A program made the position numbers and the translations under genes. The notes under the pieces are model-generated. The model was given only the letters and a program-made list of their open reading frames with translations. It was not told the DNA's origin and did no database searches. Shown here one piece after another: positions 11,030-18,223 of a stretch of 64,000 nucleotides of DNA (positions are counted from its first letter, which is position 1; every line of letters begins with the position of its first letter). The DNA is from Lactobacillus johnsonii. GTDB taxonomy: Bacteria; Bacillota; Bacilli; Lactobacillales; Lactobacillaceae. The stretch spans positions 620,001 through 684,000 of the forward strand of contig NZ_CP047409.1 of NCBI RefSeq assembly GCF_013487865.1, in the 5' to 3' direction.

Positions 11030-11357
11030 AATAAAATCTCCTTTTTTAAACTATTACAATAATACCTTAAAATTATGCCCTATGATAGCTTTCTGAGCAA
11101 TAATCTTGACAAATATGTTTTTTATAGTGAAATATTTTGGAACTAGTTAAAAATAAATATCTTGTTCACTATTAATATTTATAAAATTAATTCTCTTTCA
11201 AAAAAATATATATTTACTAGTAGTACGTTATAGAAAAAGAATACTAAATCAGTAATCAAATTGACCAATTTGGTATTTTTTGATTTTTTAGATAGTAAAA
11301 GATGGTAATATTTAAGACATAAAAATGTTATTAATTGTTTTAGAGGAGAGAATAACA
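11030..11357. other. 328-base divergent regulatory region
   Basis: AT-rich spacer between udk (leftward) and the pheromone gene (rightward). The udk half holds its ribosome site. The right half holds the candidate LytTR repeats (listed separately). I see no other gene or structured RNA. Confidence 0.6.
11246..11311 (+). promoter_or_regulatory. candidate LytTR-type regulated promoter of the pheromone gene (site B)
   Basis: Direct repeats AAATCAGTA at 11246 and AATTTGGTA at 11267 start 21 bases apart. The extended minus-10 TGG-TAATAT has its hexamer at 11306-11311, 39 bases after the second repeat. The lack of a good minus-35 fits an activator-dependent promoter. The adjacent LytTR regulator (14321-15118) is the natural ligand. 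Confidence 0.65.
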
Positions 11358-11513
11358 ATGAAAGAAATTAAAAAAGAAAATATTGTTAAGAAAGTTATTT
11401 TAACTGAAGAGGAAATGAGTGAAGTTACTGGTGGAGCTAGAGTAAATGCCTTTGCTGGTGGTGGAAAAATTAGTAAAAATATATTTTACTGGACGCGTAA
11501 TATTTGGAAATAA
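11358..11513 (+). CDS. double-glycine leader peptide, probable bacteriocin-inducing pheromone
   Basis: 51-residue peptide. The 26-residue leader ends ILTEEEMSEVTGG, a classic double-glycine leader cut by C39-peptidase exporters such as the one at 15131. The predicted mature peptide is 25 residues, from ARVNAFAGG to NIW K, basic and ending in aromatic residues. Its small size and position just before a sensor kinase gene point to an inducing pheromone, not a killing bacteriocin. Its promoter carries the LytTR-like repeats. ATG 11358 has AGAGGAGAG upstream. The kinase gene starts two bases after its stop. Confidence 0.85.
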   Translation: MKEIKKENIVKKVILTEEEMSEVTGGARVNAFAGGGKISKNIFYWTRNIWK

Positions 11514-11515
11514 AA

Positions 11516-12822
11516 ATGTTATTAGTATATGTTCTTTTAATGCTTGCTTCTGGAATAACTGACTTATGGATATTCTTTAGAATTTCTCAAGTTGCAGCTA
11601 GCAAAAAAATATTTTGAGTCTAGGTGCAGTGGTACTATTACTTCCCATTTTATGTGTGGGAGTTATCGAACTAGCTACTTTTTTAGAAATTTTATTTTTT
11701 GTATTTTATTTTAGAAAAAGTAAAGAAAAGGATGTGGCTATTGGATCAATTCTAATTGTGGGAGTTGTAGATTCCATCGTAGATATATTAGCCAGTATCT
11801 TAGCGGAGCTTTTGTTCATTGAGGATGCAATTTATCTCAATTTATTAGTCCAAATTATCGTTTTAATTTTTACTGTCTTTATAATTGAAATATTTCATAA
11901 ATATTTTTACTCAGATTTAATAAGTGAGAATCACAAGGTGTTTATTGGACTTCTGTTCTACTTGTATGTCTCCACCACTTTAACAATAATTTTTTACAGG
12001 CAAACTAGAAAGGTTACATCGTTAAGCATATTTTTTACAATTTTTGTATTAATACAAGTAGTCTTTGCAGTAGCCACTTACGGGGAACTAATAAATATTC
12101 AAAAACATCTTTTGAAAAAGTCCCAACAAGACAAACTAATAAAAGAGCAAAAACAACTTCAAGAATACACGCGATACTTAGAAGAGAGCGAAGATGAACT
12201 GCGTGCTTTTCGCCATGATTATCGAAATATGTTTAATTCATTAAAAATCAGTGCACAAGAGGGAGATACGAAGGAACTAATTCAAAAACTAGACGAATAT
12301 ACTAAGACTAATTTAAATGCCAAATCATTTGAAAAGTATAGAGATGTTAATCATATTAAAATAAAATCTTTGAAAAGCATTATTATTGCTAAGTTAACAG
12401 AAATGTATGGATCAAAAATCCCATATAATTTCGAATGTAGAGATGATATTACTAAAATCCCTAACAATATTAATGGATTGGATTTAGTTAGAATTATTGG
12501 CATCAGTTGTGATAATGCAATTGAAGAAAGTAAAGCATTATTGAAGCAGAATAAAAAAGCTCATATTGAAATTATGATTAGTTCAAATGAGGATGGCGAA
12601 TTTGAATATGAAATTCAGAATAAAAGAAGAGATTCAGAAATTTCACTTAAACAAATCCAGCAACGTGGTTATTCAACGAAGAAAAGTCATTCTGGCATGG
12701 GTTTAGCCAATATCAATAGTATTAAGAATAAATATGAAAATATGACAATCTCTTATGAAGTGCCGAAGGGATACTTTGATTTCTATCTCGTAATTGAACC
12801 AGAGGAGCTAATTAACAGTTAA
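11516..12822 (+). CDS. bacteriocin pheromone sensor histidine kinase (HPK10), N-terminal frameshift
   Basis: Membrane sensor for the pheromone. The frame opened by ATG 11516 encodes a first membrane helix (MLLVYVLLMLASG...) but ends at TGA 11614-11616 just after seven A residues at 11603-11609. The rest of the kinase continues in another frame to 12822. One more A would join them into a protein of about 435 residues, normal for this family. The downstream part has several membrane helices, phospho-acceptor His in FRHDYRNMFNSLK, the N-box DNAIEES and the G-box GMGLANI. A TTG restart at 11614 lacks a ribosome site. It is either inactivated or switched by slippage on the A tract. Confidence 0.8.
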
Positions 12823-12858
12823 TGAAAATATAGAAATTTATAGAAGAAATAGAAAAAC

Positions 12859-12893
12859 AGCTTATTTAGAAAGTTAAACATGGAAAATAAGCT
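12859..12893. repeat. left-end subterminal hairpin of the IS605-type element
   Basis: AGCTTATTT and AAATAAGCT form a perfect 9-bp stem with a 17-base loop. In this family such palindromes mark the ends bound by the transposase. It could also act as a weak terminator for the kinase transcript. Confidence 0.55.
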
Positions 12894-12965
12894 TTAATTT
12901 AATATTTACTTGTTTTGCTTTCCTTCCTTAGATAAACTTATGTTTGTATTTAAGGAGGTGAAGAA

Positions 12966-14123
12966 ATGATTAAAACACAAGTAGTTAAGCTAAAAGTTAA
13001 TAAAACAATGCAAAAGCATCTTGATAATTTGTGCGACTATCGTAGGTATTGCTGGAACAAAGGATTAGAAACTTGGCAATTAATGTATGAAGCTCATACA
13101 TTAAATAGAAAAGATAATCCTAGCCCTAATGAACGCAGGGTCCGTGATGAATTAGTAGCTAAGAAAGAAGATTGGCAGTATGAATTATCTGCACGTTGTC
13201 TTCAATTAGTGGTTAAAGATTTGGCTAATGCTTGGAAGAACTTCTTTGATAAGGCTCAATCTGATTGGGGTAAGCCTAGTTTCAAATCAAAGAAAGCCCC
13301 TAGACAAAGCTTTAAAACTGATCGAGCTAAGATTGTTAATGGCAAGCTTCGACTTGATAAACCTAGAAGTGTCTCAAAAGAAGATTGGTTTGATTTGTCT
13401 AGTTATGGGGCCTTAAAGATGAGTGAAGTTAAAGTAGTAAGTATCTTCAAAGAAAAAAACGCTTATTATGCGGCTCTTCCCTATGAAGAAAAGATTGAAT
13501 ATAAATCTAAAACTCATCAAAAGACAGCAGTTGATGTCAATGTCGGTCACTTTAATTACACAGATGGACAAATCAATGTTTTGCCTGTTAAACTGCAAAA
13601 ACTATATAAACGTATCAAGCATTATCAAAGGATGCTAGTCCGTAAAAGAGAAATTAATGGGAAATCAGCTATTAAATCAAATAATTACTCTGCAGTGAGA
13701 ACCAAACTGCAAAGAGATTATCGCAAGGTAGCTAATATTCAAAATGATCTTTTACAGAAGTTTACTACTAAGCTTGTAGATAATTACGACCAAATCGTAA
13801 TTGAAGACTTAGCAGTCAAAGACATGATGATGACGCACGTAGCTTCAAAAGGTATGCAGAGGTCTTTATTTAGTAAGTTTAGACAGATATTAACTTATAA
13901 GTGTGATTGGTATGGCAAAGAATTAATCTTAGCTGATAAAACATATCCATCAACACAAAGATGCGCTAAATGCGGATACGTCAAAACGGGTGATGAAAAA
14001 ATTACTTTGCAAGGCAATCAAAAGCATGGCACCAAACATAATGAGTATATCTGTTATAAGTGTGATTACAGTAATGATCGAGATGAAAATGCAGTTTTAA
14101 ACCTTTTAGCTTTAGCAAGATAA
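12966..14123 (+). CDS. tnpB: TnpB RNA-guided nuclease of the IS200/IS605 family
   Basis: 385-residue accessory protein. Known TnpB proteins are nucleases guided by an RNA made from the element's right end. The RuvC catalytic set appears complete: Asp 190 (TAVDVN), Glu 280 (IVIEDL) and Asp 371/373 (NDRDENAVLNL). The zinc-finger CAKCG...CYKC is at 333-366. Positions match those of the studied ISDra2 protein (D191, E278). The RuvC-I wording VDVNVG differs from the usual GIDLG but keeps the Asp. The start ATG 12966 has a strong AAGGAGGTG. The protein looks intact, so it is not a nuclease-dead TldR-type repressor. No tnpA is present, so movement would need one in trans. Confidence 0.92.
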   Translation: MIKTQVVKLKVNKTMQKHLDNLCDYRRYCWNKGLETWQLMYEAHTLNRKDNPSPNERRVRDELVAKKEDWQYELSARCLQLVVKDLANAWKNFFDKAQSDWGKPSFKSKKAPRQSFKTDRAKIVNGKLRLDKPRSVSKEDWFDLSSYGALKMSEVKVVSIFKEKNAYYAALPYEEKIEYKSKTHQKTAVDVNVGHFNYTDGQINVLPVKLQKLYKRIKHYQRMLVRKREINGKSAIKSNNYSAVRTKLQRDYRKVANIQNDLLQKFTTKLVDNYDQIVIEDLAVKDMMMTHVASKGMQRSLFSKFRQILTYKCDWYGKELILADKTYPSTQRCAKCGYVKTGDEKITLQGNQKHGTKHNEYICYKCDYSNDRDENAVLNLLALAR

Positions 14124-14320
14124 AAAAATAAAAACAAAGGGGCTGGCTAGGCCCTAAAGCTGTGAGAGCTAGTCAATGTGATTACTCCTAAATGGAATAT
14201 CAGAATACTAATGAAGACAACAGTAAATAAAACAAAGAAAGGGAAAATATATCTTTCTGATATGTAGAAAATACATATTCTTCTACATATTTCCATGTTT
14301 TATATAGCAGTGAAAAAACA
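14124..14320 (+). ncRNA. probable omega (guide) RNA region at the right end of the tnpB element
   Basis: The 197 bases after tnpB hold GC-rich hairpins, for example GGGCTGGCTAGGCCC near 14141-14155, and end at the host junction. In TnpB systems the guide RNA covers the end of tnpB and this region, and its guide is the host sequence just past the right end. Here that would start TGAAATATCCAGTAATTATT, the first codons of the regulator gene. Identified by position and family knowledge only. Confidence 0.45.
14260..14290. repeat. right-end subterminal hairpin of the IS605-type element
   Basis: ATATGTAGAA and TTCTACATAT form a perfect 10-bp stem with an 11-base loop, 30 bases before the regulator's start codon. 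It pairs in concept with the left-end hairpin at 12859-12893. Confidence 0.55.
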
Positions 14321-15118
14321 TTGAAATATCCAGTAATTATTTGTGATGACGATAAAACACTAGCAAATAATTTAGTAAATAATGTGAAATACGCAGCTCA
14401 GAATTTAGTTGAAGACAATACAGCTTATGAAAATGTGGAGATTAGTGTAGAGCAAGTTGCCACTACCTTTGAGCAAGTCGTAAGTTATGTAGTGGCTAAG
14501 GATATTCAAAATGCAATTTACTTCTTAGATATTGAATTAAGTCAAAATTCTGAAGCTAAGAATGGAGTAGATTTAGCAGAATTCATCAAAAAACAAGATC
14601 CGAATGCTCAGATTATTTTTGTTACTGCTTATGATAAGTACGCCCCCTTAACTTATCGAAGACGAATTGGTGCAATTGACTATATTAATAAAGCACTAGA
14701 CCAAAATGATATGATGAAGCGTCTAGAAGAAACAATTACTGGGGCGATTCAAAGTATTAACAATCTTACAAAGTCTGGAAGAAAAGAGCTTGTTTATAAA
14801 GTAGGCCGCAGGATAAATAAGGTAGAAGATACTAATATCTATTATCTTGAAAATAGCCCTACACAGCATAAAGTCACTCTAATAACTGAAACTGGTTCAG
14901 CTGAATTTAGAAGCAATATTTCAAAAATTAGTGATGAAAATGACTTTCTTGTTAAAATATCTCAATCTTGCGTAGTTAATCCAAATAATATTGATAGCAT
15001 TGATTTTTCGAAAAAGACCATAACATTTCCTAATGGGGATGAAGTAATATTTGCTCGTAGCTTCAAAAAACATGTCAAGAATTTACTAAATAAATATCCG
15101 GAAATTAACGTTAAATAA
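14321..15118 (+). CDS. LytTR-family response regulator of the bacteriocin locus
   Basis: Transcription activator of 265 residues. The receiver domain has acidic DDD at 9-11, phospho-acceptor Asp 70 (YFLDIEL) and the VTAYDKYA segment at 101-108. The C-terminal LytTR DNA-binding domain covers about 150-260. It should bind 9-bp repeats 21 bp apart, as seen at four promoters in this window. The start codon is TTG 14321 with no clear ribosome site: the upstream transposon has replaced the first base of the original ATG and removed coupling to the kinase gene. Expression may be low. The exporter genes follow in the same direction. Confidence 0.9.
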   Translation: MKYPVIICDDDKTLANNLVNNVKYAAQNLVEDNTAYENVEISVEQVATTFEQVVSYVVAKDIQNAIYFLDIELSQNSEAKNGVDLAEFIKKQDPNAQIIFVTAYDKYAPLTYRRRIGAIDYINKALDQNDMMKRLEETITGAIQSINNLTKSGRKELVYKVGRRINKVEDTNIYYLENSPTQHKVTLITETGSAEFRSNISKISDENDFLVKISQSCVVNPNNIDSIDFSKKTITFPNGDEVIFARSFKKHVKNLLNKYPEINVK

Positions 15119-15130
15119 AAGGTAAGACTT

Positions 15131-17290
15131 ATGTTATTCAAATATAAATCTGTTTATGTACCTCAAGTAGATGAGATGGATTGCGGAGTTGCTTGTCTAG
15201 CAATGATCTTAAAGCAGTATCAATCTCGTGTGTCTTTAGCACATTTGCGTCACGAAGCTCGCACAAATCTTGAAGGCACAACTACGCTGGGACTAGTTAA
15301 AACAGCACAGAAATTTAATTTTAAAACTGAAGCCGTAAAAGCTGATATGTCTCTTTTTAATGAGGATACTATTCAATACCCTTTTATCGTGCATGTTCTT
15401 AAGCAAGGAGAATTACTTCATTATTACGTAGTTCTTAAAAATACTAAGAATTACTTAGTAATTGCCGATCCTGATCCATCAGTTGGCATAATAAAGATGC
15501 CTAAAGATAAATTTGCTCAAGAATGGACTGGTATTGCGCTTTTTATGGTTCCGAATGAAGATTTTGAACCAATTAAAGAAAAGAAAAATAACCTATGGTC
15601 TCTCTTTCCATATATGTTTAAGCAAAAGCGGCTGATGATTAATATCATTTTAGCCGCTTTATTAATGACAATAATTAGTATTTGTAGTTCATACTTTGTG
15701 CAAGGAATAATCGATACTTATATTCCCGATGGAACTTATCAGACTCTTTCAATTTTAGCTGTTGGACTATTAATTGCTTATATTTTTAATTCAATCTTTT
15801 CTTATGGACAGAATTTTTTATTAAATGTTCTAGGTCAAAGATTAAGTATTGATTTAAACCTCCAATATATAAGGCATATTTTTGAATTGCCAATGGAATT
15901 CTTTGTGACTAGAAGAACTGGTGAAATAACCTCACGTTTCTCTGATGCAAGTAGAATTATTGATGCTCTAGCAAGTACTGTTATTTCACTTTTCTTAGAC
16001 TTAGCGATTGTAATTGTAATGGGACTAGTGTTAGCTGCTCAAAATATGACCTTATTTGGAATCACATTATTAGCTTTACCAGTATATGCTGTAGTAATTC
16101 TGGGATTTACTAAGAAATTTGAAAAGTTAAATGATGAACAAATGGAGAGCAATGCAGTACTAAGTTCTTCAGTCATCGAAGATATTCAAGGTATTGAAAC
16201 TATCAAAGCTCTCAATAGTGAAGATACAAGATATCGTAGAATCGATAGCCAATTTGTAAATTATTTAAAGAAGTCATTTAAATATAGTAAGGCTGAGAGT
16301 TTGCAGACGGCGTTAAAGACATTTATTCAACTATCTCTTAATGTAATTATTTTATGGGTTGGCGCACGAGTAGTGATGCAAGGACAGATGAGTATCGGTC
16401 AATTAATGACTTTTAATGCGTTACTATCTTATTTCATTGACCCACTTCAAAATATTATTAACTTACAACCTCGTCTTCAATCAGCTAGTGTTGCACAAAA
16501 TAGATTGAACGAGGTTTATCAGGTGCAAAGTGAATTTAATGCAGATACTTCTATCCAGAACTCAGCTGCTTTAGAAGGAATGATTGAATACAAGCATGTT
16601 GATTATCGATATGGTTATGGGACGGATGTTTTAAAAAACATTAATCTAAAAATTAAGCCAGATGAAAAATTAGCAATTGTTGGCATGAGTGGATCAGGAA
16701 AATCGACAATGGTTAAGTTACTCGTTGATTTCTTTTCACCAAGTAAGGGAGAAGTAACTTTAAATGGTCATGCAACTAGTGAAGTTAATAAACATACCTT
16801 ACGCTCATATGTTAACTATGTTCCTCAAACGCCATATATCTTTTCTGGAACAGTTAAGAAGAATTTATTACTCGGCTGCAGACCGGATATTAGCGAAGAA
16901 GATGTAATTAAAGCCTGTCAGATTGCTGGAATTGATCAGGAGATAGCTAGTTTGCCACTACAATTCGAGACAAAGTTAGATGAGAATGCCAAGATTTTAT
17001 CCGGTGGACAAAAGCAGAGATTAACTATTGCTAGAGCATTACTCTCGCCAGCAAAAGTTTTTATCTTTGATGAAGTAACAAGTGGTTTAGATACAATTAC
17101 AGAAAAAAGAGTAGTTGACAATCTTATGAAACTAAAAGACAAGACAATCATTTTTATTGCACACCGTCTAGCCATTGCAGAACGTGCAGATAAGGTGGTT
17201 GTAATTGACCAGGGGCAGATTGTTGAAGAAGGAAGTCATGAAGAGCTTATGGAGCAACATGGTTTTTATTATGACTTAGTAAAGGGATAG
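15131..17290 (+). CDS. bacteriocin/pheromone ABC exporter with C39 peptidase
   Basis: Inner-membrane exporter of 719 residues that cuts double-glycine leaders and secretes the peptide. The N-terminal C39 protease has Cys 18 (EMDCGVACLAM), His 97 (LLHYYV) and Asp 113 (ADPDP). A six-helix membrane domain spans about 165-450. The ATPase has Walker A GMSGSGKST near 518-526, the signature LSGGQKQR and Walker B VFIFDEVTSGLD. All catalytic motifs are intact. ATG 15131 follows a modest AAAGG. Its substrate here should be the pheromone at 11358. It is in an operon with the regulator upstream and the accessory gene downstream. Confidence 0.93.
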   Translation: MLFKYKSVYVPQVDEMDCGVACLAMILKQYQSRVSLAHLRHEARTNLEGTTTLGLVKTAQKFNFKTEAVKADMSLFNEDTIQYPFIVHVLKQGELLHYYVVLKNTKNYLVIADPDPSVGIIKMPKDKFAQEWTGIALFMVPNEDFEPIKEKKNNLWSLFPYMFKQKRLMINIILAALLMTIISICSSYFVQGIIDTYIPDGTYQTLSILAVGLLIAYIFNSIFSYGQNFLLNVLGQRLSIDLNLQYIRHIFELPMEFFVTRRTGEITSRFSDASRIIDALASTVISLFLDLAIVIVMGLVLAAQNMTLFGITLLALPVYAVVILGFTKKFEKLNDEQMESNAVLSSSVIEDIQGIETIKALNSEDTRYRRIDSQFVNYLKKSFKYSKAESLQTALKTFIQLSLNVIILWVGARVVMQGQMSIGQLMTFNALLSYFIDPLQNIINLQPRLQSASVAQNRLNEVYQVQSEFNADTSIQNSAALEGMIEYKHVDYRYGYGTDVLKNINLKIKPDEKLAIVGMSGSGKSTMVKLLVDFFSPSKGEVTLNGHATSEVNKHTLRSYVNYVPQTPYIFSGTVKKNLLLGCRPDISEEDVIKACQIAGIDQEIASLPLQFETKLDENAKILSGGQKQRLTIARALLSPAKVFIFDEVTSGLDTITEKRVVDNLMKLKDKTIIFIAHRLAIAERADKVVVIDQGQIVEEGSHEELMEQHGFYYDLVKG

Positions 17291-17300
17291 GTGAAGATAG

Positions 17301-17894
17301 ATGGACGTAAAAGACTATGAAAGCACAGAATTCTATTCCTATAAATTTAAAAATTTTTCGACAATGATTATTATTCCAGCTGCTATTCTTGTCTTCCTTG
17401 TATTTATTGGTTCTTTTTTTGCAATTAGACAGAGTACAGTTTCTTCAGTCGGAGTTATTGAGCCAGTGACTGTGATTAAACAAAAAACTACTAATTATGA
17501 TGAGGGGCAAATTGTAACAAAACATGGTCAAAAATGGGTAGCTCATATTGATCAAGATGATGCAGTAAATTTGATGCCCATGATAGCAGCCAAGAAACAG
17601 GTGAAGATAATCACTTACGTACCAAGTAATAAGGTTTCGGCTATTAAAAAGGGACAGACGATAAACTTTTCTGTCCCAACAGGAGATGGCTTGACCAGTA
17701 GATTAATTGGTAAAGTGAGAGAAATTGGCGTTTATCCAGTAAATATAAATAAGCAGAGTGGCTATGAGATCATCTCGACTGCGAAAATTAATGATGAAAA
17801 TGTTAAGTATGGGATGCAGGGAAATGCGACAATTCTCACGGGTAGTAGCACTTATTTTGAATACTTTTTAGATAAGATCTTGAATAAGAAATAA
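17301..17894 (+). CDS. bacteriocin export accessory protein
   Basis: 197-residue bitopic membrane protein: short cytoplasmic N-terminus, one hydrophobic helix at about 22-45, then an extracytoplasmic part with beta-rich segments. It occupies the place of the HlyD-like accessory factor in class II bacteriocin loci, which is usually about 450 residues and has a coiled-coil hairpin. Here only the parts flanking the hairpin seem present. It follows the exporter by 10 bases with GGTGAAG at a suitable distance. The short form may be normal for this species group; I cannot exclude a deletion. Confidence 0.75.
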
Positions 17895-17938: not shown

Positions 17939-18223
17939 ATGAATGAAAATAAGCTAAAAATGATGTTGACTAAAATCAAAGCAAATGTTGATATTGCAAC
18001 TGATCCAGAAGCACAAAAACTAATTGAATCAGCACTTGATGCAGTAGATAGAAAAATTGATTTACAAAAAGTTATGCATGATCTAAAGCAAGATATTAAT
18101 ATGTATTCTGTGGCGCATGGATTTAAGCTACCAGAGACTTTGACAAAGTTACAGCTTTTATTAGATAAAAATCCTGATAAATGGGTTGGTGCAGGTGCTG
18201 GTGGAGTTTGGCCAGTAATCTAG
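17939..18223 (+). CDS. bacteriocin immunity-like protein (enterocin A immunity type)
   Basis: 94 residues, mostly helical, without membrane helices. Size and pattern fit the four-helix-bundle immunity proteins of pediocin-like bacteriocins. The C-terminus is unusual: DKWVGAGAGGVWPVI, rich in Gly and Trp. The C-terminus decides specificity in this family. The protein at 19464-19778 is a paralog with a similar Trp/Gly-rich tail. RBS AGGTGAGG is upstream. No bacteriocin gene accompanies it. The family call is by eye and moderate. Confidence 0.65.
   Translation: MNENKLKMMLTKIKANVDIATDPEAQKLIESALDAVDRKIDLQKVMHDLKQDINMYSVAHGFKLPETLTKLQLLLDKNPDKWVGAGAGGVWPVI

What the first reader, a model, noticed from the sequence alone, without database searches (positions are those of the whole stretch)
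11516..11640. Sensor kinase frameshifted at a run of seven A: pseudogene or slippage switch
ATG 11516 begins a normal first helix but ends at a TGA right after A7 (11603-11609). One more A (or a -1 slip) restores a kinase of about 435 residues, with all later motifs intact. Such A tracts can give slippage or reversible length change, so sensing may be off, low-level or variable between cells.
Basis: partly seen in the sequence, partly recalled or inferred. Interest (0 to 1): 0.7.

Follow-up and report, generated by a model that had tools for sequence, protein, structure and literature searches.

The report
Frameshifted quorum-sensing kinase in bacteriocin locus
A Lactobacillus gene for the sensor that listens for the cell's own bacteriocin-inducing signal is broken by one missing base in a run of A's, most likely a recent ordinary loss of function in a locus that also lacks bacteriocin genes; a reversible switch remains possible but is unproven.

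Summary
The ATG 11516 frame stops at TGA 11615-11617, shortly after A7 (11603-11609), giving 33 residues; the rest of the kinase (402 codons) is open in another frame. All five close orthologues have eight A's there and an open kinase frame (one fragment runs off its contig), so none starts at the later TTG. The gene is the histidine kinase of a gassericin-type (gaePKRTC-like) bacteriocin quorum-sensing operon. The genome has no hit for the class II bacteriocin peptides that three relatives carry at this locus.

Best reading: a recent single-base contraction that makes the cell deaf to its own inducing peptide. The downstream codons still look constrained, and homopolymers elsewhere match a relative's lengths, so a general assembly fault is unlikely, though this one base is unverified without reads. 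A7 runs are common here, and published slippage rates at A7 are low (0.39% in E. coli), so a slippage switch is possible but unsupported.

In the genus survey 9 of 44 evaluable related kinases are broken; the neighbouring response regulator is open in all 9. This resembles agr in Staphylococcus: a new member of a known kind.

The parts
11298..11326 (+). conserved upstream block before the inducing-peptide gene (probable promoter/regulator-binding area)
   Evidence: invariant in nearly all columns across window, G045, G031, G016, G034; function inferred; no direct repeats found by the repeat finder
11358..11513 (+). 51-aa double-glycine peptide, probable inducing peptide (gaeP-like)
   Evidence: ORF; weak NCBIfam bacteriocin-like peptide hit below cut-off; conserved in relatives 5' of the kinase
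11516..11617 (+). 5' part of the frameshifted histidine kinase: 33 codons and stop, one hydrophobic segment
   Evidence: 81-84% identical to the start of intact orthologues in G045, G031, G006 and G034
11603..11609 (+). A7 tract; eight A's in 5 of 5 close orthologues
11614..12822 (+). 3' part of the kinase, 402 codons from TTG 11614 (TTGA overlaps the upstream stop): five hydrophobic segments plus AgrC-like kinase module
   Evidence: AgrC 6e52/4bxi matches
12870..14300 (+). TnpB-bearing insertion between kinase and regulator, approximate ends
   Evidence: TnpB ORF 12966-14123; same insertion in G045, absent in G031 and G016; its left end recurs at three other places in the genome
14321..15118 (+). 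response regulator with LytTR DNA-binding domain (gaeR-like), intact
15131..17290 (+). C39-peptidase bacteriocin ABC transporter (gaeT-like, 719 aa), intact; sequence from about 16331 on matches the second copy of G016
17301..17894 (+). transporter accessory protein (gaeC-like, 197 aa), matches copy 2 of G045 and G016
17939..18223 (+). enterocin A immunity-like protein, 94 aa
   Evidence: Pfam EntA_Immun E 2.4e-4, 21.8 bits against cut-off 22.1

Best explanation
This is a recent loss-of-function frameshift (A8 to A7) in the histidine kinase of a gassericin-type three-component bacteriocin locus. Shown: the reading frame is cut after 33 codons, inside the loop after the first hydrophobic segment; orthologues are longer and open; regulator, transporter and accessory genes are open; no hit for the class II bacteriocin peptide genes of three relatives was found in this genome. 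Inferred: the cell can still make and export the inducing peptide at basal level but cannot answer it, so regulator-dependent genes (transport, immunity) stay at basal level. Rare DNA reversion of the A run, transcriptional slippage of the order of a few transcripts per thousand, or weak restart at TTG 11614 (giving a five-segment receptor) may leave traces of kinase, but none is shown to matter.
For: A8 in 5 of 5 close orthologues against A7 here. Four of the five have open frames of 444-448 codons counted from the stop before the start, and the fifth is open to its contig end. No second copy of this kinase in the genome: one match. Codons after the lesion carry no stop, and window-branch changes are 20 non-synonymous to 29 synonymous against 16.5 to 18.5 on the G045 branch (outgroup G006), with 3 to 5 in the cytoplasmic half; binomial probability of so few non-synonymous under no constraint 0.008, or 0.06 with a milder site ratio. 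So the lesion is recent or the product is still used. Bacteriocin structural peptides (PF10439) sit in the same locus of G045, G016 and G031, but the own genome has no PF10439 hit, no DNA match to the A/X segment and no protein match. Related kinases are often broken: 9 of 44 evaluable loci.
Against: No reads and no other strain of this species could be examined. Conserved downstream codons also fit a product that is still made. G000 carries 5 coding frameshifts in 287 comparable genes against 0 of 295 in G045, which could mean real decay or sequencing error. The kinase may be expressed in part by slippage or restart. The empty result had no positive control genome.
Confidence: 0.7

Rival explanations
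1. Phase-variable kinase: the A run changes length by slipped-strand mispairing at replication, so a few cells regain a kinase and the population hedges between hearing and not hearing the signal.
For: The lesion is exactly one unit of the gene's longest homopolymer. Downstream codons remain constrained. Published precedents: reversible poly(A) change in S. aureus agrA (PMC6686034, passages), inlA A6 to A7 at about 5.5e-7 (PMC2831843, abstract and sections 5 and 9). Another broken kinase of the genus, G060 contig 39, has its frame change in a repeat of about four ATTTT-like units.
Against: All five close species are in the A8 state, no strain variation was available, seven A's is short for a fast switch, and such runs occur about every 1.3 kb on either strand.
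Confidence: 0.12
2. Sequencing or assembly error: the true sequence has A8 and the kinase is intact.
For: Homopolymer deletion is the classic error; 5 coding frameshifts in 287 genes in G000 against 0 of 295 in G045.
Against: 133 of 162 coding A/T runs of 7 or more found in G045 have the same length in G000; 5 are shorter and 1 longer, and the reciprocal count is also balanced: 133 same, 4 shorter (one search counted 5 indels). The other four frameshifts are not mainly in long A/T runs and one gene (pepC-like) also carries a stop codon, as in real decay.
Confidence: 0.12
3. Functional recoding: -1 ribosomal or transcriptional slippage at the A run makes a controlled small dose of full-length kinase.
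For: A run of lysine AAA codons followed by an ATA codon lies just before the stop; tssM of Citrobacter works this way with A11 (PMC4256274, abstract).
Against: Relatives read through in one frame with A8, so there is no conserved recoding. Downstream RNA fold is no better than shuffles, z -0.98. A7 insertion by E. coli polymerase was 0.39% (PMC6260861 section 20), and the paper gives 7 T's as the minimum for productive slippage.
Confidence: 0.05
4. Restart at TTG 11614, which overlaps the TGA (TTGA), yields a 402-aa receptor without the first membrane segment that still works or signals constitutively.
For: TTGA overlap and an open frame; five hydrophobic segments remain.
Against: No Shine-Dalgarno-like sequence in the 20 bases before the TTG, and the first in-frame ATG is at residue 206. 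An odd number of segments would be expected to upset the topology (inference). No orthologue starts there.
Confidence: 0.05

Closest known systems
Gassericin E / gassericin T regulatory operon gaePKRTC (Lactobacillus gasseri; PMC4788914, abstract and passages seen)
   Same: Gene order peptide, kinase, regulator, ABC transporter, accessory; kinase starts 2 bp after the peptide gene; transporter 719 aa and accessory 197 aa as in the paper
   Different: Window kinase is frameshifted, a TnpB element separates kinase and regulator, and the structural genes gaeA/gaeX have no counterpart found in this genome; sequence identity to the published genes was not computed
Staphylococcus aureus agr frameshifts, including poly(A) variants (PMC8768832, passages; PMC6686034, passages)
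   Same: AgrC-type kinase (AgrC is the nearest solved structure) with recurrent frameshifts; agrC gained the most different frameshifts; poly(A) changes in agrA can revert
   Different: Bacteriocin rather than virulence regulon; reversibility not shown here; only one genome per species
Pneumococcal blp locus with frameshifted blpAB (PMC4739728, passages)
   Same: Double-glycine-peptide bacteriocin quorum sensing with common frameshifts and debate on non-producing strains
   Different: There the transporter is the gene commonly broken; here the kinase is broken and the transporter is open
inlA 5' poly(A) tract of Listeria (PMC2831843, abstract and sections 5 and 9)
   Same: One-base change in a short A run near the 5' end truncates the protein
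   Different: Run length polymorphism among strains was shown there, not here

Membership tests
gassericin-type three-component bacteriocin locus | double-glycine inducing peptide gene directly before the kinase | tested here: met
   51-aa peptide with GG site, 2 bp before ATG 11516
gassericin-type three-component bacteriocin locus | AgrC/ComD-like membrane kinase and LytTR regulator | tested here: met
   HATPase_c_5 and LytTR hits, AgrC model and structures; but the kinase frame is broken
gassericin-type three-component bacteriocin locus | C39 ABC transporter and accessory protein | tested here: met
   TIGR01193 1064 bits; TIGR01000 127.5 bits, below its cut-off of 258.85
gassericin-type three-component bacteriocin locus | two-peptide class II structural genes (A and X) | tested here: not met
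   no PF10439, DNA or protein match in the own genome; present in G045, G016, G031
pseudogene by frameshift | open frame in orthologues, interrupted here | tested here: met
pseudogene by frameshift | loss of purifying selection after the lesion | tested here: not met
   no sign of relaxation; read as recency, or as remaining use
phase-variable homopolymer locus | tract length varies among strains or within a culture | not testable with these tools
   one genome per species, no reads; A8 in 5 of 5 other species
programmed frameshift gene | out-of-frame arrangement and stimulatory signals conserved | tested here: not met
   relatives are in frame; fold z -0.98

The most novel reading that the evidence does not exclude
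Across Lactobacillus bacteriocin quorum-sensing loci the receptor kinase is a repeatedly used, partly tract-driven off switch: cells become deaf to the inducing peptide while regulator, exporter and immunity genes stay intact, and some lineages return to hearing by a change of run length.
Probability: 0.1. Interest if true: 0.65.

Novelty: new member of a known kind. Interest (0 to 1): 0.33.

Why it matters
If the kinase is truly off, this strain cannot induce its bacteriocin locus by its own signal, which matters for predictions that read bacteriocin activity from genome annotation. The genus-wide excess of broken kinases beside intact regulators (9 of 44 against 2 of 42) makes it testable whether losing the receptor is favoured, as discussed for agr, or is plain decay.

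Tried and rejected
Homologues starting at TTG 11614: rejected, 5 of 5 orthologues run through the tract. General homopolymer collapse of the assembly: not supported. Paralogous kinase taking over: the protein search found one match in the genome; five other GHKL kinases exist but are distant, and cross-talk was not tested. Stimulatory RNA structure: none. Direct repeats upstream of the peptide gene as regulator sites: none found by the tool, though an upstream block is conserved. Terminator between kinase and regulator: none predicted. Deletion versus never-had for the bacteriocin genes: left open. The window transporter and accessory genes match copy 1 upstream of about 16331 and copy 2 downstream. 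That fits deletion between repeats, but also a cassette gained by relatives. First frameshift candidate (metK) was dropped as an upstream non-coding extension. A conserved shared frameshift site in L033 and L152 was looked at and is not the same sequence. Literature searches for a described frameshift in this kinase listed none; only listings plus the passages cited were seen. PMC6036575 was looked into by passages and held nothing on this point.

Full report
What is there. The window lies in a Lactobacillus chromosome (genus inferred from named relatives; window at 620001-684000 of a 1,995,616-base contig). Around the finding the gene order is: double-glycine peptide 11358-11513, kinase from ATG 11516, TnpB-bearing insertion, LytTR regulator 14321-15118, C39 ABC transporter 15131-17290, accessory protein 17301-17894, an enterocin A immunity-like protein 17939-18223 (just below the Pfam cut-off), and several small unassigned ORFs. 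This is the order reported for gaePKRTC of gassericin E, with the kinase 2 bp after the peptide gene, a 719-aa transporter and a 197-aa accessory protein (PMC4788914, abstract and passages). Identity to the published genes was not computed.

The lesion. The ATG 11516 frame reads 33 codons and stops at TGA 11615-11617, two codons after A7 (11603-11609). The other frame opens at TTG 11614 and runs 402 codons to 12822. All 75 genus genomes were searched with the DNA. Besides the window, five genomes hold a close orthologue over the whole N-terminal part (G045, G070, G034, G006, G031), and all five have eight A's in place of seven and an open frame; G034's copy is cut by its contig end after 295 codons. 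A sixth, G016, shares the leader and the kinase module but has a different sensor part and different mature peptide. G045's intact kinase has six hydrophobic segments; the window's 5' product keeps one and the 3' frame keeps five (simple hydropathy).

Is it real? I compared 464 kb of this genome with 400 kb of G045. Of 288 G045 ORFs with a collinear match (of 334 tried), 6 frameshift candidates appeared; one (metK) was an upstream artefact, leaving 5 of 287, and 7 genes had internal stops. In the other direction there were 0 frameshifts in 295 matched ORFs (of 390 tried) and 5 genes with stops. The excess of frameshifts in this genome is a result that keeps sequencing error on the table. But homopolymer lengths agree: of 162 coding A/T runs of 7 or more found in G045, 133 are the same length here, 23 substituted, 5 shorter, 1 longer; runs found in this genome show 133 same, 22 substituted, 4 shorter in G045. 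The frameshifts include short runs and one gene with a second lesion. So a general base-calling fault is unlikely; this single base remains unverified without reads.

How old? After the lesion there is no further stop in 402 codons. On the window branch (outgroup G006) I count 20 non-synonymous and 29 synonymous changes against 16.5 and 18.5 on the G045 branch; with outgroup G031 the numbers are 31:30 and 11.5:14.5. In the cytoplasmic half the window branch has 3:5 (G006) or 2:2 (G031). With the G006 count, constraint for most of the branch is suggested (binomial 0.008, or 0.06 with a milder ratio). The sample is small. The lesion is therefore recent, or something is still made. The sensor half differs from G045 far more than the kinase half (dS 0.47 against 0.06), which together with G016 points to swapping of peptide and sensor modules between lineages, a known habit of such systems (recalled).

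The locus lacks its product. G045, G016 and G031 carry two-peptide bacteriocin genes of Pfam PF10439 in this locus. In this genome PF10439 gives no match, the G045 segment gives only a 68% match to a different small ORF, and the G031 peptide gives none (no positive control in that call). The window transporter and accessory genes look like copy 1 upstream of about 16331 and like copy 2 of G016 downstream, so deletion between repeats or a cassette gained by the relatives are both possible. A TnpB element sits between kinase and regulator here and in G045, where the kinase is intact, so the element did not by itself bring the frameshift.

Switch or loss? A7 runs are frequent here (213 A and 133 T runs of 7 or more in 464 kb). 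Published figures: 0.39% insertion at an A7 by E. coli RNA polymerase (PMC6260861, section 20 read), A6 to A7 reversion in Listeria inlA near 5.5e-7 (PMC2831843, section 9), a run of 11 A's in the tssM example (PMC4256274, abstract), and reversible poly(A) change in S. aureus agrA (PMC6686034, passages). These make leak or reversion possible, but nothing in this window shows that it is used. No downstream RNA structure stands out.

Wider pattern. I tested 48 kinase loci from the genus search: the 30 given as loci and 18 fetched. At least four weak rows (G008:C1:1635821, G007:C21:26173, G060:C76:6301, G003:C3:103802) were not examined. Four loci cut by contig ends (L010, L026, L034, L144) were dropped. 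Of the remaining 44, 9 are broken: six frameshifts (L005 the window, L013, L024, L031, L033, L152) and three stops (L018, L025, L029). L156 lacks about 70 N-terminal positions and was counted as intact. The neighbouring regulator is open in 9 of 9; in L033's case it is shared with an intact kinase next door. Of 42 evaluable regulators (L112-L137 and L142-L159, less one cut by a contig end and one counted twice; the weak hits L138-L141 left out) 2 are broken (L130, L142). Fisher p is 0.0496 without allowing for the longer kinase gene, so this is suggestive only. Five of the six frameshifts fall in the first quarter of the kinase profile. PMC8768832 (passages) reports agrC as the agr gene with the most different frameshifts.

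Verdict. Ordinary in kind and well supported as a lesion: most likely recent loss of the receptor in a bacteriocin quorum-sensing locus without bacteriocin genes. The switch reading stays open at low probability.

Noticed in passing
window 11358-12153 against G045 and G016: Inducing peptide and sensor half are much more divergent than the kinase half (dS 0.47 against 0.06 with G045; G016 has a wholly different sensor): mosaic, as if pherotypes are swapped
   Followed up: partly
window 16331-17894: Transporter C-terminal half and accessory gene match the second, remnant copy of G016 at 89-100% per 120-base block while the N-terminal half resembles first copies: repeat recombination or a cassette gained by relatives
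   Followed up: partly
L152 849-877 (minus strand; G060 contig 39): A related kinase changes frame within an array of about four ATTTT-like units, a possible contingency repeat
   Followed up: partly
window 12804-12900: About 97 bases at the left end of the TnpB element recur at three other places of the genome (85-92% identity)
   Followed up: no
G000:C1:587136-588460 (minus strand): A pepC-like aminopeptidase gene with a one-base deletion in a short A run plus an internal stop compared with G045
   Followed up: no
window 17939-18223: Immunity-like protein whose C-terminal tail (after about residue 86) differs from the relatives' shared tail
   Followed up: no
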